From: Leisingera sp. NJS204
Lineage (GTDB): Bacteria; Pseudomonadota; Alphaproteobacteria; Rhodobacterales; Rhodobacteraceae
Assembly (NCBI RefSeq): GCF_004123675.1
Contig: NZ_CP035417.1
Span: 921,501-985,500, forward strand
Direction: 5' to 3'
Length of the DNA: 64,000 bases
Position numbers and translations under genes: made by a program. Under the pieces are notes generated by a model that searched no databases, was not told the DNA's origin, and saw nothing but the letters and a program-made list of their open reading frames with translations. Shown here piece after piece: positions 6,276 through 36,731 of the stretch; within the stretch, counting starts at the first letter, position 1; every line of letters begins with the position of its first letter.

Positions 6276-6317
6276 CATTGCCCGGCAGACGATTGCGAAG
6301 CAATCAGCCGAGAGGGG
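6276..6317 (+). repeat. Class-1 hairpin micro-insertion (copy A)
   Basis: Constant left part CATTGCCCGGCAG, perfect stem GATTGC / GCAATC with loop GAA (6291-6305), constant right part CCGAGAGGGG. It interrupts orfB between VTT and DSN and adds an estimated 41 bp, shifting the frame. Same orientation as the host gene. Confidence 0.8.
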
Positions 6318-6649
6318 GACAGCAACCACGCCTTCAACATCGCACCCAATCTGCTGAACCGGGATTTCTGCGCAGATGCGCCCAATCAGAAATGGGCAGG
6401 TGACATAAGTTACGTGTGGACGCGCGAGGGCTGGCTCTACCTGGCGGTGATCCTTGATCTGCATTCCCGGCGGGTGATCGGTTGGGCCATCAGCAATCGG
6501 ATGAAGCGGGACTTGGCGATCCGGGCGCTGAACATGGCTATAGCCTTCAGATCACCGCCTATGGGCTGCATTCATCATACGGATCGTGGATCGCAATACT
6601 GTTCTCATGACTATCAGATAATCCTGCGACAACACGGGTTCAGCGTGTC

Positions 6650-6689
6650 CCCCTCTCATGCATGTAAACATGCACTGCCGGGGCAGTGG
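6650..6689 (-). repeat. Class-1 hairpin micro-insertion (copy B)
   Basis: Reverse orientation to the host gene: CCCCTCTC, then stem TGCATGT / ACATGCA with loop AA (6659-6674), then CTGCCGGGGCAGTGG. It adds 39 bp in frame (13 codons, no stop) to orfB just before MSGKGNCYDN. The constant hairpin has one extra G compared with the other copies. Confidence 0.8.
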
Positions 6690-7183
6690 ATGAGCGGCAA
6701 GGGAAATTGCTACGACAACTCGGCGGTCGAAACGTTCTTCAAAACGATCAAGGCAGAGCTGATCTGGCGAAGGTCGTGGCCAACGCGTAGGGCCGTTGAA
6801 CTGGCCATCTTCAACTACATCAATGGCTTCTACAATCCGCGACGGCGGCACTCAGCATTGGGCTGGAAAAGCCCCGTCGCATTCGAACGGAAAGTGGCCT
6901 AAACGAGCACTTGGAGCGGCACGAAAACGGGACACGTCCAGATCCGCCGGCAGCGGCTTCAGGGCGGGCCTGTCCAACTGATCGAACAGCTGCCGGCGGC
7001 TCGCGCCAAGGTGGCGGGAGACCTTGCTGTTGAGCCTGTCCAGCAACGGGCGGATGGCGGCATTTACTTCCTCAAGGCTAAAGAATTGCCGGTTGCGCAG
7101 CCGTGCCAGGATCCAGCGTTCGACCAGCAGGACAGCGCTCTCGACCTTCGCTTTGTCTCTTGGTTTGCGCGGCCTCGCGGGCA

Positions 7184-7226
7184 GTGAGCCCGTGAAGGCG
7201 CCACTGGTTCAAGCCCACTGGCGAAC
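7184..7226 (+). repeat. Class-2 hairpin micro-insertion (copy H) in istA
   Basis: Plus-strand order: GTGAGCCCGTGAAGG, then CGCCACTGG ... CCACTGGCG (9-bp near-perfect stem around TTCAAGC), then AACGG. It resembles copies at 29628 and 45058. It sits in reverse orientation to istA, adds about 39 bp between DTAV and LPARP, and brings the TGA at 7209-7211. Confidence 0.6.
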
Positions 7227-8016
7227 GGCAGTATCGTAGTGCGCGGCCAGATCCGCGCAGGTGCGGTTGAGCTCGGGATCGTAGAAACGGGCTTTGTTGA
7301 CGCCGGCCCGAAGATTATCGGGTACAACTTGAGCGGTCACACCGCCAAAAAAGGAAAAGGCCCGCACGTGGCTGGAGATCCAATCCGGCAGCGTCTGGGT
7401 CCAGGTCGCCTCGGCGAAGGTGAAGTTGGAAGCACCGAGGGTAGCGACAAACAGCTGCGCCGCGCGGACCTCGCCGGTCTCGGGGTCGATCACGTCAATC
7501 GTGGCACCGGCATAGTCGACAAACAGCCGCTCGCCTGCGGGATGGCGCTGGCGCATGACCGGCGACAGCTTACCTTCCCAGCAGGAATAGAGGTCACAGA
7601 AACGGCTGTATCCGTAGCCATCGGGGTGGGCCGCGCGGTACTCCTCCCAGAGCAGGGAAAGCGTGACGCCCTTGCGCCGCAACTGCAGGTGGACATAGGA
7701 CCAGTCCGGTTGAGAGGCGCGCCGGGCTGCCTCCCGGGCAGTGCGCGGATAGAGGTGTCGTTCAAGCTCGCTGTCCGACATCTCCGCTGGCAGCGGCCAG
7801 CTTAAGCCTGCCTCATGAGCGCGATCCAGATACCCTTGCAGCGTGGTGCGGCCAATCGCCAAGCTCGACGCCATCTGGCGGGTCGATAAACCCTCGGCTG
7901 AAAGTCGCAGTACGTCTCGTATCTTCCGCATCGGTAATCTCTTCATCGTGCTTCCTTCGGTCGGGAAAACCGAAAGGGAGCGAGTTGAAAGGTGCCTCGC
8001 AGCTGGGCGTCAGAAG

Positions 8017-8109
8017 GGTGGCCGGATGTTCCGGATTCAGTGGCCGGAAAAAATCGGAATCAGTGGCCGGATGTTTTTGGAATGGGTGGCCGGATCAAAC
8101 TGGAATACG
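8017..8109. repeat. IS21 terminal repeat array
   Basis: Four tandem imperfect repeats of about 22-23 bp, each beginning TGGCCGG and containing GGAT or GGAAT (for example TGGCCGGATGTTTTTGGAAT), end at TACGCA near 8109. Multiple end repeats of this type are the transposase-binding sites of IS21-family elements. They sit just upstream of istA and mark the 5' end of the element. Confidence 0.75.
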
Positions 8110-8146
8110 CAGCCAGGGCCTCAGACCGCAGATCCTTCACTTCAGG

Positions 8147-9378
8147 TGAATTAGTCTCGATGTGATCTGACACCGCCCCCATTTTTTCAAATTGGATTGG
8201 GGGCGGTGGTTCCCTTGAAGGGAGATGGTTGTCCGTTTTGATGGTGGTGCCAACCAAACCATCGAAACGAGGAAACCACGATGTTGAATACTACCGACAA
8301 GATCATCAAACACAAAACCGGCCTGCTGAATCTGGCCGAGGAACTGGGGAATGTCTCGAAAGCCTGTCAGGTGATGGGCTATAGCCGGGATACTTTCTAT
8401 CGCTACAAGTCAGCCGTTGAAGAAGGCGGCGTGGAAGCGCTGTTTGAGCGCACCCGGCGCAAGCCCAATCTGGCAAACCGGGTGGACGACGCGACCGAGC
8501 AGGCCGTCATCAAATCCGCCACTGATTTCCCGGCCTACGGTCAGGCCCGCACTTCGAACGAGTTGCGTAAGCTGGGTGTCTTCGTCTCACCCTCGGGTGT
8601 CCGGTCGATCTGGCTGCGGCACGATCTGGCGAACTTCAAGGCCCGGCTGAGGGCGTTGGAAGCCAAGGTGGCCGAGGACGGCATGATCCTGACCGAGGCC
8701 CAGGTGCAGGCGCTGGAGAAGAAGAAGCTCGACGATGAAGCCTGCGGCGAGGTGGAAACAGCCCATCCCGGCTATCTGGGATCACAGGACACGTTTTATG
8801 TCGGCACCCTCAAGGGCGTCGGGCGGGTCTATCAGCAGACTTACGTGGACACCTATTGCAAGGTGGCGCATGCCAAGCTCTACACCACCAAAACACCGAT
8901 CACCGCAGCCGACCTGCTCAATGACCGAGTGCTGCCATTCCATGACGAGCACGACCTGCCGGTGCTGCGGATCATGACAGATCGCGGGACGGAATACTGC
9001 GGGCGCGTCGACAAACACGATTTCCAGCTCTTCCTGGCGATCAACGATATCGACCACACCAAAACCAAGGTGAAATCACCGCAGACCAATGGCATCTGCG
9101 AACGGTTTCACAAGACGGTGTTGCAGGAGTTTTATCAGGTCGCGTTCCGCAAGAAGCTCTACGACAGCATCGAAGCCTTGCAGGCCGATCTGGACGAATG
9201 GCTGCACCACTACAACCACGAGCGCACTCATCAGGGCAAAATGTGTTGCGGCAGAACGCCGTTTCAGACCATGATCGAGGGCAAAGAAATCTGGAAGGAA
9301 AAGTTTCTGAACCAAACTTGACCTGACAGACGCCGCCGGAAAAACGGCCAACTGTCAGATCACATCGGAACCACTACA
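8147..9378 (+). mobile_element. IS481-family element, copy 1 (complete)
   Basis: 1232 bp, starting TGAATTAGTCTCGATGTGAT and ending in GGAACCACTACA; the inner GATGTGATCTGACA is a perfect inverted repeat. It is flanked by a 7-bp target duplication, CTTCAGG, at 8140-8146 and 9379-9385. By eye it differs from copy 2 (37095-38326) at one synonymous base only (9305 T, C in copy 2). It is inserted in an IS3-type orfA. Confidence 0.93.
8281..9321 (+). CDS. IS481-family DDE transposase (copy 1)
   Basis: 346 residues with an N-terminal winged HTH (GNVSKACQVMGYSRDTFYRY) and an rve integrase core. The core has GSQDTFYVGTL and YVDTYCKVAHAKLY (first Asp region), IMTDRGTEYCG (second Asp) and TNGICERFHKTVLQEF (Glu). 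The frame is intact, with GAGGAAACCACG before the ATG. It moves its own element by a cut-and-paste or copy-out reaction. It is identical in protein sequence to the gene at 37229, which suggests recent activity. Confidence 0.94.
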   Translation: MLNTTDKIIKHKTGLLNLAEELGNVSKACQVMGYSRDTFYRYKSAVEEGGVEALFERTRRKPNLANRVDDATEQAVIKSATDFPAYGQARTSNELRKLGVFVSPSGVRSIWLRHDLANFKARLRALEAKVAEDGMILTEAQVQALEKKKLDDEACGEVETAHPGYLGSQDTFYVGTLKGVGRVYQQTYVDTYCKVAHAKLYTTKTPITAADLLNDRVLPFHDEHDLPVLRIMTDRGTEYCGRVDKHDFQLFLAINDIDHTKTKVKSPQTNGICERFHKTVLQEFYQVAFRKKLYDSIEALQADLDEWLHHYNHERTHQGKMCCGRTPFQTMIEGKEIWKEKFLNQT

Positions 9379-9385
9379 CTTCAGG

Positions 9386-9641
9386 CGATGTCGCCTGCCG
9401 GGGCCGTATCGCCGGACAGACGGCGTTTCCCTGCTTCGAGGAACTCCTTGGACCAGCTGTAATACAGGCTCCCGGAAATGCCTTCGCGCCGACACAGTGC
9501 CGAAATGCTTTCCTCACCTCGAAGGCCGGCCAAAACAATGCGGATCTTCTCCTCCGCCGAATAGGCCTGACGGATCTTGCAGCGGATGCTCTTGACCAGC
9601 TGGTCAGCCGCGGCTTTGCTGGTTCCGGATTTCTTGTTCAT
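9386..9641 (-). pseudogene. IS3-type orfA, cut by IS481 and IS21
   Basis: Start ATG at 9641 with GGAGTGAAG upstream. The visible product is an HTH OrfA (KIRQAYSAEEKIRIVLAGLR, SALCRREGISGSLYYSWSKE, FLEAGKRRLSGDTA). The remainder of the gene (PEVKDLRSEA) lies beyond IS481 at about 8110-8146, where the IS21 end interrupts it again. A one-base frame discrepancy just before the IS481 junction suggests the gene was already damaged. No orfB is present. Confidence 0.75.
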
Positions 9642-9896
9642 CTTCACTCCTTGACGGTTACGATGAACCAGAAATCCTCCGTTGTTCAAATCCTCAAATC
9701 TGTCCCACAGGTGCTGACGTCAGACACCTTTGTGGATCGTTGCAGACCCACCTTGGCACAGTGATGCCGTCGGGGGCGGTCACATCATCAGAGCCTCATG
9801 GAGAGCAATGCCGGAAGCCTGCATGGAGGATCCTTTTTGCGGGCCTCCCCCACTCTTGGGGAGGGGGAGACCGGCTGATTGCAGGCATGTCCCGGA

Positions 9897-10949
9897 TTAA
9901 AGGGGGCAAACCTTGATACCGGACTGAAAGGCGGTCCCCAACAGAATCTTGTCCTTATATGGGGCTGCAACGCTGACTGAGGACTGCAGAGAGCCGTCAT
10001 TCTCCAGCATCAGCTTGCTGTCCCCGGTGGCCGGATCAACGCGGTAGACCTGGAAGGGTGACAGTGCGCTGGCATCTTTGATGTGGCCGTCAAAGGCCAT
10101 CAGGTTCAAGTGGCTGGCCACCCAGAGGCTGCCGTCTTCGGCAACACTGATATTGTCAGGTGCTTCGCCAACAGAGATTTCGCGCACCAGGGTCAGAGTG
10201 TTTGTGACCGGGTCACGTTTGAACTCCTTCAGGACGCTTTCGCGCATGGCGGTTGCGTAAACGGTTTTTCCTTCGTCGATTGTAGCCACGCCATTAGCAA
10301 AGGCCATGGGCGCGGAAAGGGAGACCTCACCCTGATCGTAAACGGAAACATCGGCAATTTTCTGGGCCAGCATCATTTCGACGAGGTTGGCAAAGTTACC
10401 GAACCTGCCGCGGTCGTTGCTGAAATAGACGGTGTTCAAGTCAATGGCTGCCAGATCGTTGGGGGAACGGATGCCGCTGTTCTGATAATGCTCTACAAGA
10501 TTCAGCGTATTTTCGCGCACCTCAAACACAAAGATATCATGCCCGGCAGCGGGATCGGTTGCGCTGCGGTGGTTTAGTGCAAAGAGATACTGGGTTCCAC
10601 CGATTGTTTTCAGGTCAACTCCATGGGGGAAAAACGGAACAGCTGCATCCAGACCGGTTACGTTCATTTCGGTCAGAGAGTTGCTGCCATCCAAGTCCAG
10701 CCGGTGGATTGCGCCGGTGGCGATATCCCCGGCCATACCTGCACGCCTGTCTAGTGAGGAAATGAACGCAACCCCAGCGTCATAGTCGATTGCTAGGTCT
10801 TCTGGGCCTGCCATATCGCCGACACTGGTGCAGGCGGCGTCATATTGTGTTGTGATGCTGTTGAATGCACCCATCGAGGACATGAGTGCTGCACCGCCTA
10901 CCCCTGAAAGGGCGATAACCGCAGTTCCGATTAAAAGCCAGCGTCGCAT
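9897..10949 (-). CDS. Paraoxonase/SMP-30-like beta-propeller hydrolase, exported
   Basis: 350 residues from ATG 10949, which has AAAGGA eight bases upstream; an earlier in-frame ATG lies inside the preceding gene. The N-terminus MRRWLLIGTAVIALSGVGGA is a signal peptide or anchor. Propeller features of the PON/arylesterase group are seen: GPEDLAIDYDAGVAFISS, FPHGVDLKTIGGTQYLFALN, SPNDLAAIDLNTVYFSND and GEAPDNISVAEDGSLWVASH, containing the Asn/Asp Ca2+-ligand positions. Such enzymes hydrolyse lactones and aryl esters in the periplasm. It is the last gene of a minus-strand pair (10949 lies 5 bases short of the upstream stop). The substrate is unknown. Confidence 0.75.
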   Translation of the reverse strand: MRRWLLIGTAVIALSGVGGAALMSSMGAFNSITTQYDAACTSVGDMAGPEDLAIDYDAGVAFISSLDRRAGMAGDIATGAIHRLDLDGSNSLTEMNVTGLDAAVPFFPHGVDLKTIGGTQYLFALNHRSATDPAAGHDIFVFEVRENTLNLVEHYQNSGIRSPNDLAAIDLNTVYFSNDRGRFGNFANLVEMMLAQKIADVSVYDQGEVSLSAPMAFANGVATIDEGKTVYATAMRESVLKEFKRDPVTNTLTLVREISVGEAPDNISVAEDGSLWVASHLNLMAFDGHIKDASALSPFQVYRVDPATGDSKLMLENDGSLQSSVSVAAPYKDKILLGTAFQSGIKVCPL

Positions 10950-10953
10950 ATTT

Positions 10954-11778
10954 TTATCCTTTGAGTTGATTGTCATGTACAGGCAGTGCGTAGCGAGTAG
11001 CTGCCAAGATGATGGATTTGATCACGGGAACATGCTCGGGCTTGGCTGGTGCATAGAGCATGAGAAAGGTGTCTGTGGGGAAGATACGCTTGAAACGCGC
11101 CATCGAATGCAGTTCACCCCAGCCTTTGTCTATGACCTGTTTGGCGTCGCTGGGACTTAGTATTGTGTGCATAGAGCCGTCCGATGGGTGGAAGTGCCCT
11201 ATTTCCCCTTCCTTGCCGGTTGCTGGATTGCCGCCATCAACATCCTGCAGCCAGATCGCCTGATTGTGCTTTTCGTGACGGCTGAGCTTGTACTGGAGGC
11301 GGGCCGCATTCTTCGCGACGATATCGTCGAAGGCTGCGGAGAGATCACTCATTGTTGCGGTGTCTGGAAACTGGTCGATCTGGCGGTGTGGCACTGCGTG
11401 CGGCGCAACAGTCGGTCGCGGCATATCCCGGCCCGGCAGGCAATCCAGATAAGCGACATCAGCCTCACTGCCCAGCCTGGAAGAAAAGACGGATTGGTCC
11501 AGAGGATCTCCGGCCAACGGCCGCATTGCGGTCACTGTAAGCCAGCCGCGCAGATTAGAAGGGAGGCCTCCTTCACCTAGTGCGATCCAGGCGCGGTAAT
11601 CCGCTATACAGACAAGGATTAGGGCGATCGTACCCAAGATCAGAGCGGCAGCGCCAAAGATCCAGCTCACAATTGCTGCTTCATCATTTAGCCAGCCTAG
11701 AAAGCCGTGGCAGGTTTGAAGAATGCCCAAGGCGGCCAGGATCAAACCGGCCAGCCATAGCGTAATGTTCACCCGCAT
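10954..11778 (-). CDS. Membrane protein with luciferase-like (DUF5519-type) domain
   Basis: 274 residues. Two or three N-terminal hydrophobic segments (ITLWLAGLILAALGILQ, IVSWIFGAAALILGTIALIL) are followed by a soluble domain whose core HFHPSDGSMHTILSPSDAKQ and KGWGELHSMA matches the small domain annotated as luciferase/DUF5519 in many proteobacteria. That domain has no proven enzymatic activity in most members. It is co-transcribed with the paraoxonase-like gene. Function remains unknown. Confidence 0.6.
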   Translation of the reverse strand: MRVNITLWLAGLILAALGILQTCHGFLGWLNDEAAIVSWIFGAAALILGTIALILVCIADYRAWIALGEGGLPSNLRGWLTVTAMRPLAGDPLDQSVFSSRLGSEADVAYLDCLPGRDMPRPTVAPHAVPHRQIDQFPDTATMSDLSAAFDDIVAKNAARLQYKLSRHEKHNQAIWLQDVDGGNPATGKEGEIGHFHPSDGSMHTILSPSDAKQVIDKGWGELHSMARFKRIFPTDTFLMLYAPAKPEHVPVIKSIILAATRYALPVHDNQLKG

Positions 11779-11878
11779 TTCATACCTCCCTTTGGAACGT
11801 CTTAGTAACGTCCCTAGGGATATCTCATGCCGATCAGCTCACCATGTGCCAGAAGTTCAGATGTCTGGTTCAACTGGC

Positions 11879-12931
11879 TCAAAACTTGCTAAGTGAGTTG
11901 CGGTATACGCCAGGGGATATGCCGAAGTTGCGGCGAAAGGCTTTGGACAGGTTGCTGGAGTTTTCGTAGCCCGCCCGATATGCGATTTCGTCCAAGGACA
12001 GGGTCGTAGAACGCAGTAAGTCGCGGACAACGCCAAAACGCTGCGCGTTCTTGACGGCTAGAAAAGTCTCTCCCTTTTCACCCAGCCGTCGCTTCAACGT
12101 CGCAGGCGAGACCCCAAGAAGCTCTGATGCGGTCTCAATTGTGCTGCCTTTGAAGCCGGTCTTGTGGATTGCCCAGCCAACACGGCCAACTATATCCATT
12201 GTTTCCGGCGGGAGGGACAGTTCTTGCCTCAATTTGGAGACTGCGGCGGAGTTGATTTGTTTCCCGCCTGACCTTACCCGCAGTCGCATCATGGCCAACG
12301 GAAGGCTGAAGTAACTTTCTTTGTGGTTAAAGACTGTTCTGGTTCCAGGCGGCAGATATGCGGTCCATCCATCTTCGCTCGGCGCAGGCCAGACCAAAAA
12401 AATAGTGTCACTCAACTCGGTTCTGGATGTGCCGGTCAAGGTGCGGCTGATCCATGCCATGTTGACCAGGCTGGCAATAGTGTGGAACTGGACAACACGA
12501 TCTGGAGTATTGCGATTACCCGATTTGATCAGAATATCGAAGGTTTCCGTATCACGCCGGGTTTGCAGGACCTGGCTGCCACCGGTGCGCGTGGAAAAGA
12601 ACTCTGGCAGATATTCATAGGCCTTGGACAATCGGGTAGCGCTGCGCAGTGTAAGACCGAACATGCCATGAGGTTGGAGGCTCAACAGTCGACCGAATTT
12701 CCAGGGCAGCAGCGGATCTCCAGTAGCGGCGCAAAGATTGCCTGCCAGAGTACTGTAACTGTCGCTGCGGATATACCGGGGTTGGGACAGCAGATCAGGA
12801 ATCGTAAGCCCGGTTCCCGTCAGCAGAGTGCTGGCGGGAACCCCTTGGTCCGAGGCAAACGTTATCAGGAGCTCGGCGTATTCGAAGGGCAGGGAAAAAT
12901 CCCCAATGCCCACACCAGTATTCTGTGCCAT
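11879..12931 (-). CDS. AraC-family regulator (OruR-type)
   Basis: 350 residues from the ATG at 12931 (MAQNTGVGIGDFSLPFEY); no clear ribosome site. An N-terminal Arabinose_bd-type domain (FASDQGVPASTLLTGTGL, LPWKFGRLLSLQPHGMFGLT) precedes a C-terminal double HTH: ASELLGVSPATLKRRLGEKG and LSLDEIAYRAGYENSSNLSK. Domain order and length fit the OruR/ArgR-type AraC group. A paralogue lies at 31660-32727 on the other side of the island. It probably controls neighbouring catabolic genes in response to a small organic ligand. Confidence 0.85.
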   Translation of the reverse strand: MAQNTGVGIGDFSLPFEYAELLITFASDQGVPASTLLTGTGLTIPDLLSQPRYIRSDSYSTLAGNLCAATGDPLLPWKFGRLLSLQPHGMFGLTLRSATRLSKAYEYLPEFFSTRTGGSQVLQTRRDTETFDILIKSGNRNTPDRVVQFHTIASLVNMAWISRTLTGTSRTELSDTIFLVWPAPSEDGWTAYLPPGTRTVFNHKESYFSLPLAMMRLRVRSGGKQINSAAVSKLRQELSLPPETMDIVGRVGWAIHKTGFKGSTIETASELLGVSPATLKRRLGEKGETFLAVKNAQRFGVVRDLLRSTTLSLDEIAYRAGYENSSNLSKAFRRNFGISPGVYRNSLSKF

Positions 12932-13010
12932 CGGCCGAGACACTAGCCAGATAGGCTTTTTCAGACAAGAGCGATGAGTACCGGAAGCGGGCAAGGGAAT
13001 TTCATGATTT

Positions 13011-19422: not shown

Positions 19423-19426
19423 AACC

Positions 19427-25875: not shown

Positions 25876-25906
25876 GTTGCCTGCGGCGAAATCACTGGAG
25901 GCTTTA

Positions 25907-27465: not shown

Positions 27466-28018
27466 GTATCCACTCACTGGAGCAAACCCTCCGGCTTCCA
27501 GCCGGATCCGCTTAAGCGTGAAAGCTTCCTGTTATGCACTTACCCTCCGGAAAATGAGCCGCAGCCGGGTCGAAGGATCATTTTCCGGAGGGTAAGCGCA
27601 TGCAATATGATACCGGCGAACACTGCGTTTTCTACCACCGCTACCATATCGTATGGTCGACCAAATACCGCTACAAAGTGCTGCGCGGGGCATTGCGCCT
27701 GCGGGTGCGCGACATTTGCCGCCAGGTCTGCGCCGAGAACGGGGTCGCCATCTTGCGCGGGGTGCTGTCGAGCGACCATGTGCATATGTTCGTGTCGGTA
27801 CCGCCGAAACTCGCCATCTCCGAACTGGTGCGCAAAATGAAGGGCCGTTCGTCTTACCGGGTGCAACGGGAATTCCCTGCGATCCGCAGGCGCTACTGGG
27901 GCTGCCGGTTCTGGGGCCGCAGGTATTTTTCAACCATCAAAGGCGCCATCACCGAAGACATCATGCTTCAGTACCTGGAAAATCACATTGCCGATCCTAC
28001 CGGCGCCAGCCGGCAGTC
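27466..28018 (+). mobile_element. IS200-type (HUH) insertion sequence
   Basis: About 553 bp inserted in an IS5-type transposase gene; removing it rejoins the host reading frame, which fixes the ends within about two bases. There is no target duplication, as expected for single-strand HUH transposition. It carries only tnpA. The left part holds hairpins, one of which covers the tnpA ribosome site. Confidence 0.8.
27539..27596 (+). promoter_or_regulatory. Long hairpin hiding the tnpA ribosome site
   Basis: Perfect 19-bp inverted repeat, arms CTTACCCTCCGGAAAATGA (27539-27557) and its complement (27578-27596), with a 20-base loop. The second arm contains the GGAGGG ribosome site of tnpA, so the transcript should block its own translation. 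This matches the known post-transcriptional silencing of IS200. Confidence 0.75.
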
Positions 28019-28064: not shown

Positions 28065-28884
28065 AGTCTGTGATCTACACCCACGCGCATCTTGCGGGTC
28101 TTGCGCATTGGAATTTGAGTGAGGATGTCGCGCTCATCCATGGTTTTCCGCATACGGTCAGCATCATAACCCCGGTCTGCTAGCAGCACCTTGGGCTCCG
28201 GCAGGTTGTCGGCCATGACCAGGTCGACAACCGAGATAACCCGACGTTTGGCCCGGTGTGATTTCCGTTCTCATTGGCAGGCCATGCGCGTTGACGCGAA
28301 GGTGGATCTTGGTCGTGAACCCACCTCGTGAGCGGCCAAAACCCTGTCGAGGAGTCCCCCTTTAGCGCCCGTTGCCTCATGATGGGCGCGAATGACGGTG
28401 CTATCGACCATTTGCAGGGCCTCTGGGACGGCCCCGTTCTGGTTGAGGGCATCCATAATGTCCTCCTAAAGGGCCTTGATGCAAAAATCGGGCGAGGGAT
28501 TCACTGCGTGAAACCAGCATGCTAGCTGTGAGCCATGAGCAGTTGGGCCGCTAGGAAGTACAAGACCACGAACTGGCCGGCTTACAATGAGGCACTAAGG
28601 CGGCGCGGTTCGCTGACGGTGTGGTTTGATCCCGACATGGTGTGGAGACCTGCGCCGACGGGACGGCAGCCGAGCTTCAGCGATGCCGCAATCCAGACCT
28701 GCCTGACGATGAAGGTGCTGTTCGCGATGCCGTTGCGACAGACGGCTGGGTTCGTCGAAAGCCTCCTGCGGCTGGTCGGGCTGGACTGGCCGGTCCCGGA
28801 CTTCAGCCCCTTGTGCCGTCGCCAGCGGAAGCTGAACGTGGCTATCCCCTACCGTGGAGGGAAAGGCCCGCTGAACCTGTTGAT

Positions 28885-28927
28885 CCCCTCTCGTGACATC
28901 ACTGCGTGATGCACTGCCGGGCAGCGG
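28885..28927 (-). repeat. Class-1 hairpin micro-insertion (copy C)
   Basis: CCCCTCTCGTGA, stem CATCAC / GTGATG with loop TGC (28897-28911), then CACTGCCGGGCAGCGG. Reverse orientation to the host gene. It adds about 41 bp between LLI and DSTGIK, shifting the frame next to the first catalytic Asp. Confidence 0.82.
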
Positions 28928-28979
28928 ACAGCACCGGGATCAAGGCCGAGGGCGAAGGTGAGTGGAATGCCCGAAAGCC

Positions 28980-29019
28980 CCCCTCTCGCACATGCCATGC
29001 ATGTGCTGCCGGGCAGCGG
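28980..29019 (-). repeat. Class-1 hairpin micro-insertion (copy D)
   Basis: CCCCTCTCG, stem CACATGC / GCATGTG with loop CAT (28989-29005), then CTGCCGGGCAGCGG. Reverse orientation to the host gene. It adds about 38 bp between ARK and GGSKRR, 53 bases after copy C. Confidence 0.82.
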
Positions 29020-29056
29020 GTGGCTCCAAGCGGCGCATCTGGCGCAAAATACACAT

Positions 29057-29099
29057 CCCCTGCCCGTCAGGGTCATGCACAGCATGATCCCGCGAGGGG
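29057..29099 (+). repeat. Class-1 hairpin micro-insertion (copy F)
   Basis: CCCCTGCCCGTCAGGG, stem TCATGC / GCATGA with loop ACA (29073-29087), then TCCCGCGAGGGG. Forward orientation. It adds about 40 bp between KIHI and DEET. The ends are slightly diverged (CGCGAGGGG for CGAGAGGGG). Confidence 0.72.
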
Positions 29100-29356
29100 A
29101 ATTGATGAGGAAACTGGAGTTCGCCCCTGTTTCCGGACAGTTTGATTATTGACCCTATGCGGCAATTCTCCAAGTCATGGTTTCGTATGCTTGCGCGGGT
29201 GTTTGGCAGCCGATGGCGGAATGACGCCGTTGGCGATTGTAGAAGACCTCTTTGTATTCGAAGATCGCAGCCTTTGCCTGGGCACGCGTTTTGAAGCGCT
29301 CCCGGTGAACCAGTTCCTTTTTCAGGGACGCAAAGAAACTCTCCATCGGTGCGTTC

Positions 29357-29672: not shown

Positions 29673-30145
29673 CTTGATGGCAGCCACGTAGAGCCAGCCT
29701 TCAGCGGTGTCGGCATAAGTGATGTCAGCGAGCCGAACACGGTTCGGAACGGTGCAATCGAACTGTTGCTCCAACAGATTTGGTGAGGGTTTGAGGCTGT
29801 GATTGCTGTCTGTGGTGCGCCGCTTTCGACGCTTGTACAGGCACGGTGAGACATTGTTTTCACGCATTATTCTGGCCACGCGCCGCTCCGAAACGTCCTC
29901 GCCATCGGCTTTCAGATCCTGGTGGCCCCGCTTTGCCCCATATCGTTTTTTGCTTTGAGTAAACGCCGCTTTGATCTTTGGCAGCAACGCGGCGTCCCGG
30001 GTGTCCCGCAGCTTTTGCCGCTGATCCCGGGCAGGTTGCGGCTGGACAAAGCCGTAAAACCAGCTGCGCGCAACGCCAGCAATGCGACAGAGCTGAGCGA
30101 TCGGCTAAACAGTCTTGCGGGCAGCGACAAATGCATGTTTCGCGT

Positions 30146-30442
30146 TCATGTCTTCGCTGTCCTTGAGGCGAAAAAAGCGGAAGCCTTGTGGAGGATCCCA
30201 TTTTCCAGCTTCAAACGTTTGTTTTCCTTCCGCAGACGATCCAGTTCCGCTGCATCCGCCTGCTGCCTGCGCAGCGCCGCCATTGATCCTGCCGCTTCGG
30301 CCTCCAAGTGCCAGGTCTTCAGCTGGGAACTCGTCACACCCAGTTCCCTGGTCACGCCACATTGTGTGGCACCAGGCTTATAAAGCCGGCCAACAGCTGC
30401 GGCTTTGAATTCATCTGTGAACGTTCGTCTCGATTGTCCCAT
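30146..30442 (-). CDS. IS3-family OrfA
   Basis: 98 residues: HTH (RRTFTDEFKAAAVGRLYK, CGVTRELGVTSSQLKTWHLE) followed by a zipper-like helix (DRLRKENKRLKLENGILHKA). The frame is intact. The stop overlaps the ATG of orfB. With orfB broken, this protein could still bind the element ends. Confidence 0.85.
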   Translation of the reverse strand: MGQSRRTFTDEFKAAAVGRLYKPGATQCGVTRELGVTSSQLKTWHLEAEAAGSMAALRRQQADAAELDRLRKENKRLKLENGILHKASAFFASRTAKT

Positions 30443-30827
30443 TCCATGCTCCTTCCGTGGACAGGGGTAAATTACCCCGGTGTCCGGGAACAGGGACGAA
30501 GTTCAAATGCTGGAGGTCAGAGCCGTTGCGATCACTGGCAGCAATATCGGCGACGCCCCCATACTACCGGAACTGCTGGACCAGACCGGAGCGGATCAGG
30601 ACATCGCGCCGGTCACAGCCGACGGGGCCTGCGGCACAAGAAATTGCCACGAGGCAATCGCTGCCCGAAATGCTGCCGTTGTCATACCGCCACGCAAGAA
30701 CGCAAAGCCTTGGAAACCAACGAGTCCCGGCGCCGTCGCCCGCAACGAAGCGCTGCGAGCCTCGAAGTACTTGGGCCGTGCCGTCTGGCGACGGTGGAGC
30801 GGCTGCCACCGCCGGAGCCGTGTCGAG

Positions 30828-30878
30828 ATATGAGGAGGATCAGAAAAGGATCCGGGGGATCCTTTTCCCGACGATTGG
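30828..30878 (+). repeat. Class-3-like hairpin insertion (copy G)
   Basis: GAGGAGGATCAG, then a perfect 10-bp stem AAAAGGATCC / GGATCCTTTT with loop GGG (30844-30866), then CCCGACGATTGG. It adds about 45 bp between HRRSRVE and MNCIKLLG of the IS5 transposase and brings a TGA. It shares GGATCA and the G-rich loop with copy J, but grouping the two is tentative. Confidence 0.55.
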
Positions 30879-31098
30879 ATGAATTGCATCAAACTCCTTG
30901 GCCAATCCTTGATGGCACGAGACTTCGAACGCCAAGTCGCCGAGCTGCAGGTCCGTATCGCCGTGCTGAACGGCTACACTGCGCTTGGCATACCTGTTAC
31001 GCGGCCCGTGGGATAAGTCCGTCCGGGGAAAGGGGAACTACGGTCAAACCCCGATTTGTGCAACAAGGCCCAACAGAGCCATTTCACGATACGAACAT

Positions 31099-31524
31099 TT
31101 AATAGGAATGGGCCGAAGTTGCGGCCTTTCTTCTTAAGGAGAAAAAAAGTACCGCAAGGCCTGAAAAGAATAACGTGATTTGTGGGACGTGGATCATATA
31201 CGCGCCATTTGGTGAGATGGAGTCGCCCCATACTTCACTAATTCCACCTGTTGACCAGCCAAAGGTCCAAGCGACCCAAAAGGGGATTACGACTATTGTG
31301 CCAAGAATTGATACACGTCGCCAGTCTTGAAGGGTTTGGGCCTTGAATGTGAAGTAGATAGTGATAGATGCGAGCGTCAGGCCAAATGTCACCTCACGTA
31401 TGAAGTGGTTCTTCACATAGTCAGCGATCAACGGTGTCGAAAGGGACGTCGGGATAAACTGAGAATATGCAATGAACATGAACGATATTCCGCTGATGAT
31501 CAGTATGCGTCCTAATAGTGTCAT
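31099..31524 (-). CDS. Small four-helix membrane protein, unknown
   Basis: 141 residues from ATG 31524 (GGGAGAAAAAA upstream). Four hydrophobic segments: GRILIISGISFMFIAYSQF, REVTFGLTLASITIYFTF, VSILGTIVVIPFWVAWTFGW and VPQITLFFSGLAVLFFSL. A DSISPNGAYMIHVPQ loop precedes the last helix. I do not recognise the family. Base composition is clearly more A+T-rich than the neighbours, suggesting separate acquisition. It lies immediately beside the IS5 end (31071) and divergent from the AraC gene. Confidence 0.65.
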   Translation of the reverse strand: MTLLGRILIISGISFMFIAYSQFIPTSLSTPLIADYVKNHFIREVTFGLTLASITIYFTFKAQTLQDWRRVSILGTIVVIPFWVAWTFGWSTGGISEVWGDSISPNGAYMIHVPQITLFFSGLAVLFFSLRRKAATSAHSY

Positions 31525-31659
31525 ATTTTTTTCTCCCTGATATTTTATTTGTGAAGGAAATTTGATCCATTCACAACTTCTCCTCATTTATCATCATAGC
31601 GGTTTTTTCTGGTCTGGTGACGAGGTTGACTTGGCTCTGCGGCATGGTTAAGAAAGCTC

Positions 31660-32727
31660 ATGAATAGAGCTACGCAGACCGGTGCCGCAATAGGAAAAGG
31701 CGAGTTCCTGATCTCTGCGGATTACCTTGGGTTGTTGATATCGTTTTCAGCAAAATACGGCGTTTCACCAGAGTCTTTGTTTTCCAATTCGGATGTTTCA
31801 TTAACTGACTATTTGTCCAGGCCGCTCTTTGTGCGGAGTGATACGTATAACGGGCTAATCGACGAGCTTGTGGGCGCCTCGCGCGATCCGTTGCTGCCGT
31901 GGAAATACGGCAAGGCCATCAGTGAGCTGTCCCATGGAGCCGTCGGTCTAGCGCTTCAGAGTTGTGCCACATTGCAACAATTCTTCGATCTTCTGCCGAT
32001 GTTTTTTGCGACCCGTGCGGGTTACGCCCAATCCGTCTCTGTCAGGGTCGCCAAAACCCGCTGCGAAATTGTTGTCCGTTCGTCAAAACCCGATGCTCCC
32101 GGACATATCGTGCGGTTCAATACTATTGCCAGCCTGATGGCATTTGCCTGGATGAGCCGCCGGTTGACAGGAACCGAAACAGGATTTCTGGATGAGGAGT
32201 TGCAAATCTCCTGGCCCGATCCCGGGTTGGAGATTCCGGCTGATTTGCTGCCGCCGGGTACAACGGTCAGTTTCGAACAGCGGGAGAACCTGATTTCGCT
32301 GCCTAAGACCCGGCTGCATACGCGGATCGTATCCAGCAGTCCCAGTTTGATGGATGCAGCTTTGCGCCGCTGTGAGGTGGAAATGGAGGCGCCACCACCC
32401 AATTCGGGAGTGGTGGAGAAGGTGCAGTGGATGTTCCGGAAGACAGAACCGGAGCTGCCTACGCTTGAGGCAACGGCAAGCCGTCTTGGTGTTTCGCCCG
32501 CGACATTGAAGCGGCAGTTGAACAGCCAGGGGACCTCCTTCATTAAAATCAAGAAACAGGTCAGGTTCGACCGGGTCACCGGGCATCTTCTGCTTGGCAA
32601 TCTGTCGATTGACCAGATTGCTGTTCGCACTGGATTCAGCGATGCCAGCAATCTGTCAAAGGCGTTCAGGCAGTATTTCGGGGAAACCCCCGGCCAGTTC
32701 CGGGAGCGGCATAGGCTGCTGGATTAG
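31660..32727 (+). CDS. AraC-family regulator (OruR-type), paralogue
   Basis: 355 residues. The N-terminal Arabinose_bd-type domain (KYGVSPESLFSNSDVSL, LPWKYGKAISELSHGAVGLA) and C-terminal HTH pair (ATASRLGVSPATLKRQLNSQ, LSIDQIAVRTGFSDASNLSK) are colinear with the regulator at 11879. The two share LPWK-GK/R, HGxxGLxLxS and the HTH residues. It is convergent with the hydrolase/flavoprotein operon and probably controls it. Confidence 0.87.
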   Translation: MNRATQTGAAIGKGEFLISADYLGLLISFSAKYGVSPESLFSNSDVSLTDYLSRPLFVRSDTYNGLIDELVGASRDPLLPWKYGKAISELSHGAVGLALQSCATLQQFFDLLPMFFATRAGYAQSVSVRVAKTRCEIVVRSSKPDAPGHIVRFNTIASLMAFAWMSRRLTGTETGFLDEELQISWPDPGLEIPADLLPPGTTVSFEQRENLISLPKTRLHTRIVSSSPSLMDAALRRCEVEMEAPPPNSGVVEKVQWMFRKTEPELPTLEATASRLGVSPATLKRQLNSQGTSFIKIKKQVRFDRVTGHLLLGNLSIDQIAVRTGFSDASNLSKAFRQYFGETPGQFRERHRLLD

Positions 32728-32803
32728 AGCGCGGCAGGCCGGGGATTTTGCCGATTGTGCCCGGTTCCCAGCACAGCTGGCAAGAACACCGGGAGGGTGC
32801 GGT

Positions 32804-33609
32804 TTAGGCGTAAAGAAACCTTTGCATGGTTGCGGCCACATCTTCCGGAGCTTCCAGAACAGCGTTGTGGCCGACTGGCAATTTGGTGACAGAGGCTTGC
32901 GATGGCATACGGGAGAGAAGATGTTCGGAGCGGGCTGCGTCCATTGCCGGATCCTGATCACCATAGATCACCAGACAGGGAACATTGCGTCCGTTCAGGC
33001 AGTCCGACAGGTCTTCGCGGTATTTCATGACGCTGAACAAAACAGGTTTGAGCGCCTTGTAGTCCAAGAGGTGCAAATAGTTGCGCAGTTTGCTCACCAG
33101 CATATGGTCGTCTTCGGCTGCGGACTTGGACAAGAGCGCCTTTGTCAGCGCGCCTTCGAAGTTCTTGACGCCGAAGCGGGCCAGCAGGCGCGGAATAATC
33201 GAGAACATGATTTTCTCGGAGGTTTTGGGACCGGATGCGCAGGTGTTCATCAGAATCAGGCCATCGCAGCGGTCGGCAAAATGTTTGCAGAAGGATTGCG
33301 CAACAAAGCCTCCCCACGACAGGCCGACAATTGTACAGCTCGGCAGCGCGTGGTGGTCCAGTATCTCGCGCAGAGCGACGCTGCAATCTTTGATTGAGAA
33401 CAGTTTCTGCGGGGCATCTGAGCCGCCGTGGCCGGGGGGTCAATGACCAGAATGTTGTAGTCGGGGATAAAGGCCTCAAGGATCGGATCCCACATGGTTC
33501 CGTCGAAAAACATGCCGGGCCAGAAGGTCAAAGTCCCCTTGGGGTTAGGCGAACGGCTGATCGCCACGGCCATGCTGCCCAGGCTTGTCTGGATTTGCTC
33601 TTTGATCAC
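32804..33609 (-). pseudogene. Alpha/beta hydrolase with a one-base frameshift
   Basis: GTG start at 33609 overlaps the stop of the flavoprotein gene (GTGA). The first frame reads LTFWPGMFFDGTMWDPILEA and NILVIDPP; after a C6 tract (33434-33439; G6 on the plus strand) the alpha/beta hydrolase continues one frame over with GHGGSDAPQKL, the nucleophile elbow VGLSWGGFVAQSF (Ser), a late Asp in VIYGDQDPAMDA and a His in VGHNAVLEAPEDVA. Adding one base gives exactly 269 codons. The complete catalytic triad suggests recent inactivation, slippage (phase variation) or a sequencing error in the homopolymer. Confidence 0.8.
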
Positions 33610-35246
33610 GTTACTGTCTCCGCTTGGTAGGTCGCGTTAATGGCCGAGGCGGCTTTCATCGCGTTGTAGATACATAGAGATAGGAAGGTTCCTTCCAAAG
33701 AACGCCTCCCGTTTACACCGCCGCCGCCGAAACCGCTGGCCTCGCCAACGGCATAAAGACCGTCAATGGCAGATCCGTCAGACCGCAGCACGCGTGAGGA
33801 CAGGTCCGTGTTGATCCCGCCCAGACTTTTACGTGTGATCAGGTGCAGCCGGATTGCCACGAGAGGCCCCGCCGCCGGGTCCAGGATGGGTTGACCCCGG
33901 CAAATCCTAAGCCGGTCGCCTTTCCATTGGCGCAGGCCGACAATACGGCGAACCTGGTCGTCGTTGACCTGGCCGTCACTAGCTGTAAGCTGGCGGTCAT
34001 AATCGGTCAGTTCGGCTTCCAGAACTGCTTTGTCGATCCGGTTATGGCCGCTTAATCGGTTCATGCTCGCAACGAGCTCATCCAGAGTGTCGGCGGTAAT
34101 GATGTCCCGGCTGCGGGGTTCTATCTGCTTCAGAAAGTCATCAGGAACACGCAGCAGATTGGCTAGGAACGTGAGTTTGCGTTCGTCCCGGATAGCCGTA
34201 TTAAAGATGGCTCCGGAGATATTGAGCTCTCGCTTGGCAATTTCCCAGTTCATCACCTGCCAGGTGTAACCGTGGTCCTGCTCACAGACCCGCTGGCACA
34301 GATGGCGGGTGTCGAACCCGGAAACCAGTGGCATCGGGCCAATACGACGCCCATAGCAGTTAGCCCAGAGCCCGGACCGGGGCGGGATCAGACTGGCACC
34401 ATGCTTGGGGTCCATGCGATCGGAATAGGGGTGATGAATTCCGGCGGCATAATTCCAAAACGCGTCCAGATGCGTTACATTAGCAGATAGATCTTCGGCC
34501 GCCACGCGATGCAGCTTGCCATCGGAATATTCGTGCGAGCCATTAAGGATGTAGTCCGGCACCTTGGGCCAATTGTTCGGCCAGAGGCGGCGAACCTCCT
34601 CCTCGCTGCCTGTTACGCCACCGCTAGCGATGACTATGTCCCGGCCGTGAAAACGGCGTTCGATACCATTGTTTTCAGCAATGCAGCCGATGACCCTGCC
34701 GTTTTTGTAGATGAACTGCTGCACATCGTGGTGGAACACCAGCGTCAGCTTGCGGCGCTGCTTGTGGCGCATCAGGCGCTGTACCAAGAGCCGGGTCAGC
34801 TTTTCCGATGACCCCCACATGATGTGGTATCTTGGTACCGAATTGCCAGACGTGTAGTCGCCCCGCTCCACCCAGCCGGGCGCCGGTAGAAAGCGGATTC
34901 CCAGCTCCTTGGTGAGCCATTGATAGACTGTATCAGAGCCTTCATTGATATAGGAAAGCGCCCATTTTTTTTGCCAAACATCTTCTGGGCCGAATTCGGC
35001 TGCGTGCAGCCAGTCACGGGTGGCGAGTTCCTTGGAATCCTTGATCCGGTTGCTCCGCTGGATGGGCGTGCCGGTAAACCACATGCCGCCGAATGCTTCA
35101 TAAGCCTGACCGCCGAGTTTTGAGGGCGTGCCCCGTTCCAGAATGGCTACCGACCGGCCGTGGTCCAGCAATTCAAGTGCCGTGACAATCCCGGCGATCC
35201 CTCCACCAATAACCACGGCGTCAAAGTGTCTGGGAAAGGGATTCAT
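33606..35246 (-). CDS. FAD-binding dehydrogenase (KstD/fumarate-reductase type)
   Basis: 546 residues from ATG 35246 (GAGAGGCG upstream). N-terminal FAD fold FDAVVIGGGIAGIVTALELL with GGQAYEAFGGMW, and a C-terminal block GGINTDLSSRVL...GLYAVGEASGFGGGGVNGRRSL typical of FAD_binding_2 dehydrogenases, the group that includes 3-ketosteroid dehydrogenases and flavocytochrome c subunits. The long middle (residues about 80-470) is the capping/substrate domain. It overlaps the hydrolase start, so the two are co-translated. A substrate such as a ring ketone is plausible but unproven. Confidence 0.8.
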   Translation of the reverse strand: MNPFPRHFDAVVIGGGIAGIVTALELLDHGRSVAILERGTPSKLGGQAYEAFGGMWFTGTPIQRSNRIKDSKELATRDWLHAAEFGPEDVWQKKWALSYINEGSDTVYQWLTKELGIRFLPAPGWVERGDYTSGNSVPRYHIMWGSSEKLTRLLVQRLMRHKQRRKLTLVFHHDVQQFIYKNGRVIGCIAENNGIERRFHGRDIVIASGGVTGSEEEVRRLWPNNWPKVPDYILNGSHEYSDGKLHRVAAEDLSANVTHLDAFWNYAAGIHHPYSDRMDPKHGASLIPPRSGLWANCYGRRIGPMPLVSGFDTRHLCQRVCEQDHGYTWQVMNWEIAKRELNISGAIFNTAIRDERKLTFLANLLRVPDDFLKQIEPRSRDIITADTLDELVASMNRLSGHNRIDKAVLEAELTDYDRQLTASDGQVNDDQVRRIVGLRQWKGDRLRICRGQPILDPAAGPLVAIRLHLITRKSLGGINTDLSSRVLRSDGSAIDGLYAVGEASGFGGGGVNGRRSLEGTFLSLCIYNAMKAASAINATYQAETVT

Positions 35247-35588
35247 GGAGCGCCTCTCAAGCAATGCGGCTAGTAATTTCCACCGTGATTGAGAGAGTGG
35301 CGATCTTAGCCACATGGTTCGAGAGCGAAAGAGATCAACTGTTTGGTTAAAGGGGCGCAGATTGCAGGCCTGACGTCGGGAGCGAATGCGCGATGCAGAT
35401 TACACTGCCGCCATGAATGGCGCGTCTTGATAGGGTGATGGATGAGCTATTGGCATTCTGCACGCAGCCGTAGTTCGTGTATTCGCACCAGTGGCAGGCC
35501 GGCGTGGTGCTCAGCCCCCTGAATACTGGATCGTTCAGAGCTGGAGTTTTCCGCTAAATTTCCCTGGCTGAGAGAGGTGCGGAATCGC

Positions 35589-35855
35589 ATGAGAGCTCCG
35601 AAGTTCACAGAGGCACAGAAGGCGTTCATCCTGAAGCAGGGCGAGCAAGGAACGCCGGTCGCGGAGATCTGCCGCAAGGCCGGGATCAGCCAGGCGACAT
35701 ACTTCAACTGGAAGAAAAAATACGGGGGCCTTCTGCCGGACGAGATGCGCCGGCTGAAAGCGCTTGAGGACGAGAACATCCGGCTGAAGAAGATTGTGGC
35801 GGACCTGACGCTGGACCGGGAGATGCTTCAGGATGTCATTCGGCGAAAGCTCTGA
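35589..35855 (+). CDS. IS3-family OrfA
   Basis: 88 residues from ATG 35589. HTH: TEAQKAFILKQGEQGTPVAE and CRKAGISQATYFNWKKKY, followed by a coiled helix (RLKALEDENIRLKKIVADLT). Near the 3' end the sequence CGAAAGCTCTGA contains an A3G slippery run just before the stop, the usual -1 frameshift signal that fuses OrfA to OrfB in IS3 elements. Confidence 0.87.
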   Translation: MRAPKFTEAQKAFILKQGEQGTPVAEICRKAGISQATYFNWKKKYGGLLPDEMRRLKALEDENIRLKKIVADLTLDREMLQDVIRRKL

Positions 35856-36731
35856 AGCCTGGCCGTTTGCGCGAGATTGTCACCGGGATGTGCGTCGATT
35901 GGGGTGTATCGATCCGGAAGGCTTGTGGGGCCATCTGCTTCGACACATCCACCTACCACTACAAGTCCCGGCGGACCACTGCCCGGCAGGGCATCGCGCG
36001 GCGATGTCCCGAGAGGGGACCAGGCTGCCGTCGAACGGCGGATCAAAGAGATCGCAGAAACGCGTGTGCGCTATGGCTACAGGCGCGTCCATGTGCTTCT
36101 GACACGGGAGGGGTGGATCATCAATATCAAGAAGACCCGCAGGATTTACAACGAGTTGGGGCTGCAGCTCAGGAACAAGCACCCAAAGCGCCGGGTGAAG
36201 GCAAAGCTCAGAGAAGACCGTCAGGAAGCCGTTGGGCCGAACGATGTCTCGGCGATGGACTTCGTTCACGACCAGCTCGCCCTGGGCAGGAGGTTGCGTA
36301 TCCTGACCGTTGTCGACACGCATTCCCGGCTCTGCCCTGCGGCCGATCCGCGCTTCACCTATCGGGGCGAAGATGTTGTGCAGACGCTCGAACGGGTCTG
36401 CCGGCAGATCGGCTACCCCAAGACGATCAGAGTCGATAACGGCAGCGAGTTCATCTCGCGGGACCTCGATCTATGGGCCTACGCCAACGAAGTTACCCTC
36501 GACTTCTCACGGCCTGGAAAGCCCACGGACAATAGCTTCATTGAGGCGTTTAACAGCAAGCTCCGGGCGGAATGCCTGAACGCCCATTGGTTCATGAGCC
36601 TTGCAGATGCCCGCGAAAAGCTGGAGGATTGGCGTCGGCACTACAATGAGGACAGACCCCACAGCGCAATCGGATACAACGTCCCGATTGCCATGCATTA
36701 TCCCGATGGCGTCACCAGCCCGTCATCGTGA
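35846..36731 (+). pseudogene. IS3-family OrfB with a micro-insertion
   Basis: Entered by -1 frameshifting from orfA: LKPGRLREIVTGMCVDWGVS and YHYKSRR, then a class-1 insertion (35976-36017) that shifts the frame. The rest is intact: DQAAVERRIKEIAETRVRYG, the DDE residues in NDVSAMDFVHDQLA (first Asp), IRVDNGSEFISR (second Asp) and NSFIEAFNSKLRAE (Glu), and WRRHYNEDRPHSAIGY. Removing the insertion would restore a full-length transposase. Confidence 0.85.
35976..36017 (+). repeat. Class-1 hairpin micro-insertion (copy E)
   Basis: CCACTGCCCGGCAG, stem GGCATCGC / GCGATG(T)CC with loop GCG (35990-36009), then CGAGAGGGG. Forward orientation. A GGACC on each side looks like a short duplication. It adds 40 or 43 bp between KSRR and DQAAVERR of orfB. 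Confidence 0.82.

What the first reader, a model, noticed from the sequence alone, without database searches (positions are those of the whole stretch)
6276..36017. Class-1 micro-elements: constant ends around a hypervariable near-perfect hairpin
Six copies (6276-6317, 6650-6689, 28885-28927, 28980-29019, 29057-29099, 35976-36017) share CCACTGCCCGGCAG on one side and CGAGAGGGG on the other, with mild drift. Between them lies a stem of 6-7 bp that pairs perfectly or nearly so in every copy, yet the stem sequence differs each time (GATTGC, TGCATGT, CATCAC, CACATGC, CATCGC, TCATGC). So the pairing is conserved and the sequence is not. Each copy is an extra 38-43 bp inside an otherwise recognisable transposase gene, in either orientation. 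I know of no named family with this pattern; Rickettsia palindromic elements are a loose analogy.
Basis: partly seen in the sequence, partly recalled or inferred. Interest (0 to 1): 0.92.

Follow-up and report, generated by a model that had tools for sequence, protein, structure and literature searches.

The report
Mobile DNA hairpins inside transposase genes
Marine Roseobacter bacteria carry many copies of a roughly 41-letter DNA hairpin that sits inside the genes of other jumping DNA, with fixed ends and a stem whose letters keep changing while still pairing; my searches found neither a description of it nor the enzyme that moves it.

Summary
All six copies are present, and a covariance model finds 78 matches (E<=1) in this genome, and matches in 20 of 21 genus and 56 of 149 sampled family genomes. 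The unit is C-R-CTGCCCGGCAG / variable stem-loop / CGAGAGGG, usually 41 nt (34-47). Pairing covaries strongly (94.6% of cells paired; 94 cells changed on both sides against 29 shuffled) with few G-U pairs, which points to DNA. 184 of 266 distinct contexts have an empty homologue: 116 show a clean insertion, 44 one base fewer; no target duplication is seen. The target resembles CATC^G. 177 of 266 contexts match transposase or integrase proteins, of unrelated IS families, in both orientations. Stems are associated with insertion sites (identical in 18/155 same-site divergent pairs, 0.8% background), yet show no guide-like match to the target.

Best reading: a new family of non-autonomous mobile DNA hairpins that ride on insertion sequences, moved in trans, probably as single strands, by an unidentified enzyme. 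Y1 (IS200/RAYT) and Y2 (IS91) transposases were tested as mobilisers without a satisfactory fit. Whether site patterns reflect repeated gains or repeated losses is unresolved.

The parts
6276..6316 (+). hairpin element, 41 nt, stem GATTGC/GCAATC; in IS3-type transposase gene at KVT^TDSNH
6650..6688 (-). hairpin element, 39 nt (short class plus two extra bases), stem TGCATG/CATGCA; adds 13 codons in frame to the same transposase (VS^MSGKG)
   Evidence: boundaries inferred from the family, no close empty site
28886..28926 (-). hairpin element, 41 nt, stem CATCAC/GTGATG; at LI^DSTGIK of an IS5-type transposase
   Evidence: empty homologue L065 at 92.8%
28981..29018 (-). hairpin element, 38 nt, stem CACATGC/GCATGTG; same IS5-type gene
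   Evidence: empty homologue L065 at 91%
29058..29098 (+). hairpin element, 41 nt, drifted ends (CCCTGCCCGTCAG, CGCGAGGG), stem TCATGC/GCATGA; same IS5-type gene
35977..36017 (+). hairpin element, 41 nt (or 40, one G ambiguous), stem CATCGC/GCGATG; near the start of an IS3-type transposase
   Evidence: empty homologue L212 at 83.7%
5630..6941 (+). host IS (1312 nt, ends TGGACGTGTC...GACACGTCCA), IS3-type (HTH_21, rve); 8 copies found in the genome, each with both elements, no empty copy found
28535..29130 (+). host IS5-type transposase (DDE_Tnp_1_5) interrupted by three elements; 3' limit approximate
35833..36731 (+). host IS3-type transposase (HTH_21, rve, rve_3)

Best explanation
This is a family of very small, non-autonomous mobile DNA elements, each a single hairpin of about 41 nt. 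SHOWN: constant 5' end (C-R-CTGCCCGGCAG), variable stem-loop often with a conserved bulged T, constant 3' end (CGAGAGG with one or more further G); insertion without target duplication, clean or with one base fewer at the junction, at a short target like CATC^G; hosts mainly transposase genes of unrelated IS families; wide spread in Rhodobacteraceae, including plasmids. INFERRED: the folded single strand is recognised by an enzyme acting in trans that joins it into the target; copies then spread mainly by riding on IS and by horizontal transfer. Stem letters change in concert because one arm is copied from the other in hairpin or cruciform DNA, so pairing is kept while sequence drifts. Most insertions break the transposase frame, so carriers are probably moved by transposase supplied in trans. 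The enzyme was not identified.
For: Empty sites: of 184 contexts with an empty homologue, 116 have zero net junction indel (111 without any gap within 18 bases), 44 lack one base (missing base G 17, T 14, C 8, A 5; 37 of 44 within 3 bases of the junction), 13 have one base more, 11 differ otherwise. A plasmid IS30 transposase in Sulfitobacter SK025 is empty at 98.6% identity to the filled IS30 of S. pontiacus. Target logo from 35 own-genome sites: C 26/35, A 22/35, T 22/35, C 30/35 ^ G 27/35; C^G in 173/266 contexts, CATC^G in 45/266 against about 2 per kb per strand in the DNA held. DNA-level pairing: 115 cells changed on both sides against 10 on one, G-U in 12 of about 571 paired cells. Both orientations: 55 sense, 98 antisense of 153. 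No Rfam match at the elements in 6 loci. Carrier genes are damaged: 8 of 22 filled IS5 rows free of stops and off-site frameshifts against 6 of 8 empty rows (p 0.10, not significant).
Against: No mobilising enzyme was found. Y1_Tnp occurs in 6 of 21 genus genomes and not in the one with 94 copies. Y2_Tnp tracks copy number (Spearman 0.73; partial 0.56 given a rough IS-load proxy) but is missing from 8 of the 20 genomes with elements, and the IS91 ends examined are not alike. RVT_1 does not track. The two-element IS3 has 8 copies and another IS 9 copies, all filled, with no empty copy found; this needs transposase in trans or a harmless insert. Stems at one site resemble each other across diverged IS, which random insertion would not give. 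One base is missing at about a quarter of the junctions, so insertion is not always exactly clean.
Confidence: 0.5

Rival explanations
1. Reversible hairpin: elements entered particular transposase sites long ago, are inherited with the IS, evolve their stems in place, and are repeatedly lost cleanly, so that the transposase can be switched back on.
For: Same-site divergent pairs have identical stems in 18/155 against 0.8% background; stem distance 5.66 against 8.13, 0/5000 permutations as low. In one IS5 family orientation is fixed at each of three sites (11/11, 11/11, 9/9) and one variant is common at two of them (CCTTG start 6/11; TG..CA stem 8/11) across genera, scattered on the tree, while near-identical IS are empty. 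Some end features at a site are shared by different stems (CGAAAGGG with two stems; one base fewer with two stems).
Against: In the shallow clade of ten rows a few gains need fewer events than many losses (by inspection). Filled rows are if anything more damaged than empty ones (8/22 against 6/8 free of damage). At the third site no single variant prevails (4 and 3 of 9), and the CCTTG start also occurs at another site. No excision enzyme known.
Confidence: 0.2
2. Elements mobilised by IS91-like Y2 (HUH, rolling-circle) transposases.
For: Copy number correlates with Y2_Tnp number, rho 0.73. IS91-type insertion without target duplication beside a short target (recalled). Some genus IS91 left ends have a hairpin followed by AGGGG.
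Against: 8 of the 20 genomes with elements have no Y2_Tnp match; the IS-load proxy itself correlates at 0.67; the ends seen lack CRCTGCCCGGCAG, though several ends are only limits of BLAST alignments.
Confidence: 0.12
3. REP or IS200/IS605-like elements moved by a Y1 (RAYT) transposase.
For: Single hairpin, no target duplication, short target, many copies.
Against: Y1_Tnp in only 6 of 21 genomes, none in the genome with 94 copies; no GTAG or CGTC tag; mostly inside transposase genes.
Confidence: 0.08
4. RNA-level intervening sequence or translational bypass signal that leaves the transposase functional.
For: Multi-copy IS carrying frame-breaking elements with no empty sibling found; a hairpin is present in either strand.
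Against: Both orientations occur although the ends are not symmetric; G-U pairs rare; empty DNA copies abound; filled rows not better preserved than empty ones.
Confidence: 0.04

Closest known systems
REP / REPIN elements with RAYT; GTAG- and CGTC-tagged palindromes (PMC3733652: passages seen)
   Same: small single palindromes in many copies, non-autonomous; CGTC repeats are common in Alphaproteobacteria and lack a known transposase
   Different: no GTAG/CGTC tag, constant palindrome CTGCCSGGCAG beside the stem, mostly inside transposase genes of unrelated IS, Y1_Tnp absent from 15 of 21 genus genomes
IS200/IS605 family ends (recalled)
   Same: hairpin, short target on the 5' side, no target duplication
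   Different: no encoded transposase; no larger version recognised (five candidates not pursued); Y1_Tnp not tracking
IS91 / ISCR (recalled)
   Same: no target duplication; copy numbers correlate across the genus
   Different: ends differ; absent from 8 of 20 carrier genomes
Rickettsia palindromic elements (recalled)
   Same: palindromic insert inside coding genes
   Different: RPEs are longer and inserted in frame in many kinds of gene; here 31 of 184 in frame and hosts mostly transposases
Yeast mitochondrial GC clusters / byp elements (recalled)
   Same: tiny hairpins, some inside genes
   Different: other kingdom; a bypass mechanism is not supported here

Membership tests
REP/RAYT | GTAG or CGTC unpaired tag at one end | tested here: not met
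   ends are CRCTGCCCGGCAG and CGAGAGG(G) in 58 + 20 aligned rows, allowing drift; rows were chosen partly by these ends
REP/RAYT | mainly extragenic | tested here: not met
   177 of 266 contexts match transposase or integrase proteins within 600 bases, 153 with the match at or within 150 bases of the site
REP/RAYT | Y1_Tnp (RAYT) in the carrier genome (that RAYTs fall under PF01797 is recalled) | tested here: not met
   6 of 21 genomes with PF01797; the genome with 94 copies has none at E<=1e-5
IS200/IS605 | no target duplication, short target at one end | tested here: met
IS200/IS605 | mobilised by a Y1 transposase | tested here: inconclusive
   presence does not track; a lost or distant enzyme is not excluded
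IS91/ISCR | ends like those of resident Y2 elements | tested here: not met
   13 copies inspected, 16 stretches scanned for the motifs; some ends only approximate
IS91/ISCR | Y2_Tnp present in carriers | tested here: inconclusive
   rho 0.73, but absent from 8 of 20 carriers
DDE MITE | target-site duplication | tested here: not met
   160 of 184 empty sites show zero or one base fewer, 13 one base more
Rickettsia palindromic element | in-frame insertion into protein genes | tested here: not met
   31 of 184 net lengths divisible by 3, fewer than one third, p 7e-7
Known structured RNA | match to an Rfam family | tested here: not met
   no match at the elements in 6 loci at E<=1; one unrelated weak match elsewhere in L018
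Guide-directed insertion (considered) | stem sequence correlates with target sequence | tested here: not met
   mutual information and 6-nt windows within permuted range, 100 site clusters, 41-nt class only

The most novel reading that the evidence does not exclude
A dedicated, still unknown single-strand recombination system inserts and cleanly removes these hairpins in transposase genes, so that they act as hyperparasites or off-switches of insertion sequences; a transposase site keeps its own hairpin lineage while the stem letters turn over by arm-to-arm copying.
Probability: 0.22. Interest if true: 0.92.

Novelty: new variant of a known kind. Interest (0 to 1): 0.75.

Why it matters
If right, it adds an unusually small mobile DNA unit whose hosts are other mobile elements, and one that can be studied by sequence alone because many filled and empty sites exist. 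It makes testable how DNA hairpins keep pairing while changing sequence, what single-strand enzyme inserts them, and whether transposons in a major marine group are shut off, and perhaps on again, by hairpin gain and loss. It also suggests that a number of Roseobacter transposases left unannotated as pseudogenes carry a defined insert rather than random damage.

Tried and rejected
Rejected or unsupported: (1) normal coding segment or artefact: empty homologues and copies across the genus exclude it. (2) Self-splicing or bypass: both orientations, asymmetric ends. (3) Stem as guide to the target: no signal. (4) Net length never divisible by three: an early impression from few sites; 31 of 184 are. 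(5) Loss of a terminal G as the general cause of the minus-one junctions: on recount the missing base is G in 17 of 44 only. (6) Intact host frames in filled IS5 rows: on recount 8 of 22 are free of stops and off-site frameshifts, against 6 of 8 empty rows; I lowered the reversible-switch odds from a first 0.25 to 0.2, the bypass odds from 0.05 to 0.04 and the novel case from 0.25 to 0.22 for this. (7) Gene conversion between IS as source of same-site variants: no imported differences seen by eye within about 45 nt at one site, but near-identical donors cannot be excluded. (8) Reverse-transcriptase mobiliser: RVT_1 does not track. (9) Larger autonomous copy: among 210 distinct left ends in the 1.62 Mb held, 19 lacked a right end by my pattern; most of these show a drifted right end by eye, and five have a CGAGAGGG 169-1674 bases downstream that I did not pursue. 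(10) Phage carriage: 2 weak partial hits in 50,697 records. (11) Host naming by Pfam was incomplete because frames were guessed: of 30 own-genome flank proteins gave a transposase or integrase family, one of them (rve in L086) under its cut-off and one (Y1 in L002) lying beside the site rather than around it. (12) Literature: 9 full-text searches showed no description of this family; only listings and starts of abstracts were seen, plus passages of PMC3733652; most subscription papers are not held.

From the sites, four own groups and the two chance loci were dropped, leaving 161, merged to 126. From 293 contexts (copies with under 150 bases of flank dropped) those with at least 88% flank identity were merged to 266; L159 and L218 remain among them. 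Element identity is inflated because the ends are fixed by the detection pattern. Large searches use stricter filters, so their counts are lower bounds. The IS-load proxy scored at most 14 candidates a genome. Searches scored 40 of 42 and 40 of 54 candidates, so a missed empty copy is possible.
Full report
OBSERVATION. The six segments are present. In one orientation they read C-R-CTGCCCGGCAG, a stem-loop, and CGAGAGGG. The long class has 2 + 6 paired bases, a 3-base loop and a bulged T before the last two pairs, and is 41 nt; the short class lacks the bulge and is 37 nt; lengths from 34 to 47 nt occur. The exact start CCACTGCCCGGCAG occurs 15 times in the genome, reversed control 0. Model R1, built from seven copies, gives 78 matches at E<=1 in the genome, grouped into 42 sites.

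COVARIATION. In 58 distinct 43-base rows 94.6% of stem cells pair, against 69.5% in shuffles; 94 cells change on both sides, against 29; all eight pairs show double change; the score is 0.555 against 0.133, none of 500 shuffles as high; slid structures pair in 27 to 53% of cells. Twenty short-class rows give 94.3%, 21 double changes, score 0.493 against 0.168. Adding both sets, 115 cells change on both sides and 10 on one side, and G-U pairs are 12 of about 571. RNA helices usually show more G-U intermediates (general knowledge), so I infer selection or templating at DNA level. Related rows can inflate shuffle-based measures, as the tool warns. Folding energy of single copies is not remarkable.

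HOSTS. Pfam hits in frames that abut the sites are mostly transposases or integrases: rve, DDE_Tnp_1, DDE_Tnp_1_5, Transposase_mut, IstB, IS66, IS110, IS240, Tn3, phage integrase; a TraG-D_C and an RNase_H domain also appear once each. Of 266 distinct contexts 177 match one of 18 such proteins by tblastn within 600 bases, 153 of them at or within 150 bases of the site; 38 more are linked only by ORF similarity, a looser criterion. Among the remaining 51, one group of 20 includes an rve protein and one of 7 an IstB protein. L093, L097 and L111 look intergenic by eye. Orientation to the gene is mixed: 55 sense, 98 antisense; one per site cluster and length, 41 and 72, p 0.005.

INSERTION. Homologues lacking the element were found for 184 of 266 contexts in the DNA held. 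116 have zero net junction indel, 44 lack one base (G 17, T 14, C 8, A 5), 13 have one more, 11 differ otherwise. Close clean examples: 97.7% (L062 against L060), 97.5% (L310 against L248), 97.1% (L284 against L247); of the seven contexts at 95% or more, four are clean and three lack one base. At some sites the missing base fits a shorter terminal G run; the S. pontiacus IS30 element has a longer G run and is in frame. No target duplication is seen. Own-genome target logo: C A T C ^ G with 0.92, 0.68, 0.69, 1.27 and 0.90 bits. Net length is divisible by three in 31 of 184, below one third, so most insertions break the frame.

SPREAD. 20 of 21 genomes of the genus have matches, 0 to 94 each at E<=0.01. 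56 of 149 sampled family genomes match at E<=1e-4; of 190 sampled class genomes 6 match, three of the own family (the own genome included) and three of other families. In plasmids 108 of 72,556 records match; the ten genera named in the tally are Rhodobacterales (partly recalled), ten records of other genera are not named. Phages: two weak partial hits.

BEHAVIOUR. The window IS3 occurs in 8 copies found, every one with both elements; no empty copy was found, and two relatives at 81% and 75% exist. One of its elements is 39 nt and in frame; the other breaks the frame. Another IS is present in 9 copies, all filled. Such carriers need transposase from elsewhere or an insert that does no harm.

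SITE AND VARIANT. Among 155 same-site pairs with flanks under 88% identical, 18 have identical stems (0.8% in background), and mean stem distance is 5.66 against 8.13 permuted, 0/5000 as low. In one IS5 family of 30 distinct rows, orientation is fixed at each of three sites (11/11, 11/11, 9/9); at the first, 6 of 11 elements start CCTTG (one of the 11 sits about 20 bases further on); at the second, 8 of 11 have a TG..CA stem; at the third, two stem types share 7 of 9; CCTTG also occurs twice around the second site. States are scattered on the tree, and in a shallow clade of ten rows (93-100% identical to the query) rows are empty, singly or doubly filled. At the first site the CCTTG element recurs in six rows, while near-identical copies are empty and show no imported flank differences by eye. 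Filled rows are free of stops and off-site frameshifts in 8 of 22, empty rows in 6 of 8 (p 0.10): filled copies are not better preserved, which fits disruption rather than a silent insert. Either a variant returns to the same site, or old insertions are repeatedly and cleanly lost. The stem is not a guide. I cannot decide: descent with loss explains end features shared by different stems, gains explain the shallow clade with fewer events.

MECHANISM. Insertion without duplication at a short target and a required hairpin point to a single-strand enzyme (inference). Y1_Tnp: 6 of 21 genomes, none in G017 with 94 copies. Y2_Tnp: 12 of 21, rho 0.73 with copy number, partial 0.56 given a rough IS-load proxy, but missing from 8 of 20 carriers, and the ends of 13 copies do not carry the element's left end. 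RVT_1: no association. No larger autonomous version was recognised among 210 left ends, with five candidates not pursued. The mobiliser is open.

NOVELTY. Nine searches of open-access full text showed no description. CGTC-tagged REPs, common in Alphaproteobacteria and without a known enzyme, are the nearest class (PMC3733652, passages), but tags and location differ. I file it as a new variant of small palindromic mobile repeats rather than a new category, since its movement has not been seen directly.

Noticed in passing
window 27627-27986 (+): IS200-like Y1_Tnp gene (G000:C1:949127-949486), about 0.9 kb before the first of the three clustered elements.
   Followed up: no
window 45190-45753 (+): Y2_Tnp (IS91-like) gene, one of 11 Y2 matches listed for this genome.
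   Followed up: partly
L093 1501-1536 and L097 1501-1536 (- strand); L111 4398-4436: Short versions in apparently intergenic DNA, in L093 and L097 beside an AAATAC...GAGGCA context.
   Followed up: partly
L077 copy of the window IS, window-equivalent 6701-6743: 9 of its 10 differences from the window IS lie within 43 bases, as after gene conversion with another IS.
   Followed up: no
L072 and L073: Two IS copies share the same right flank but different left flanks, suggesting recombination between copies.
   Followed up: no
L185: A contig labelled Enemella evansiae (Actinomycetota) carries a Rhodobacteraceae-type IS5 with two elements; contamination or distant transfer.
   Followed up: no
L263 154, L059 2899, L284 2908: A CGAAAGGG right-end variant recurs, including at one IS5 site with two different stems.
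   Followed up: partly
L116, L128, L139, L205, L339: Left ends without an adjacent right end but with a CGAGAGGG 169-1674 bases downstream; possible longer or broken elements.
   Followed up: no
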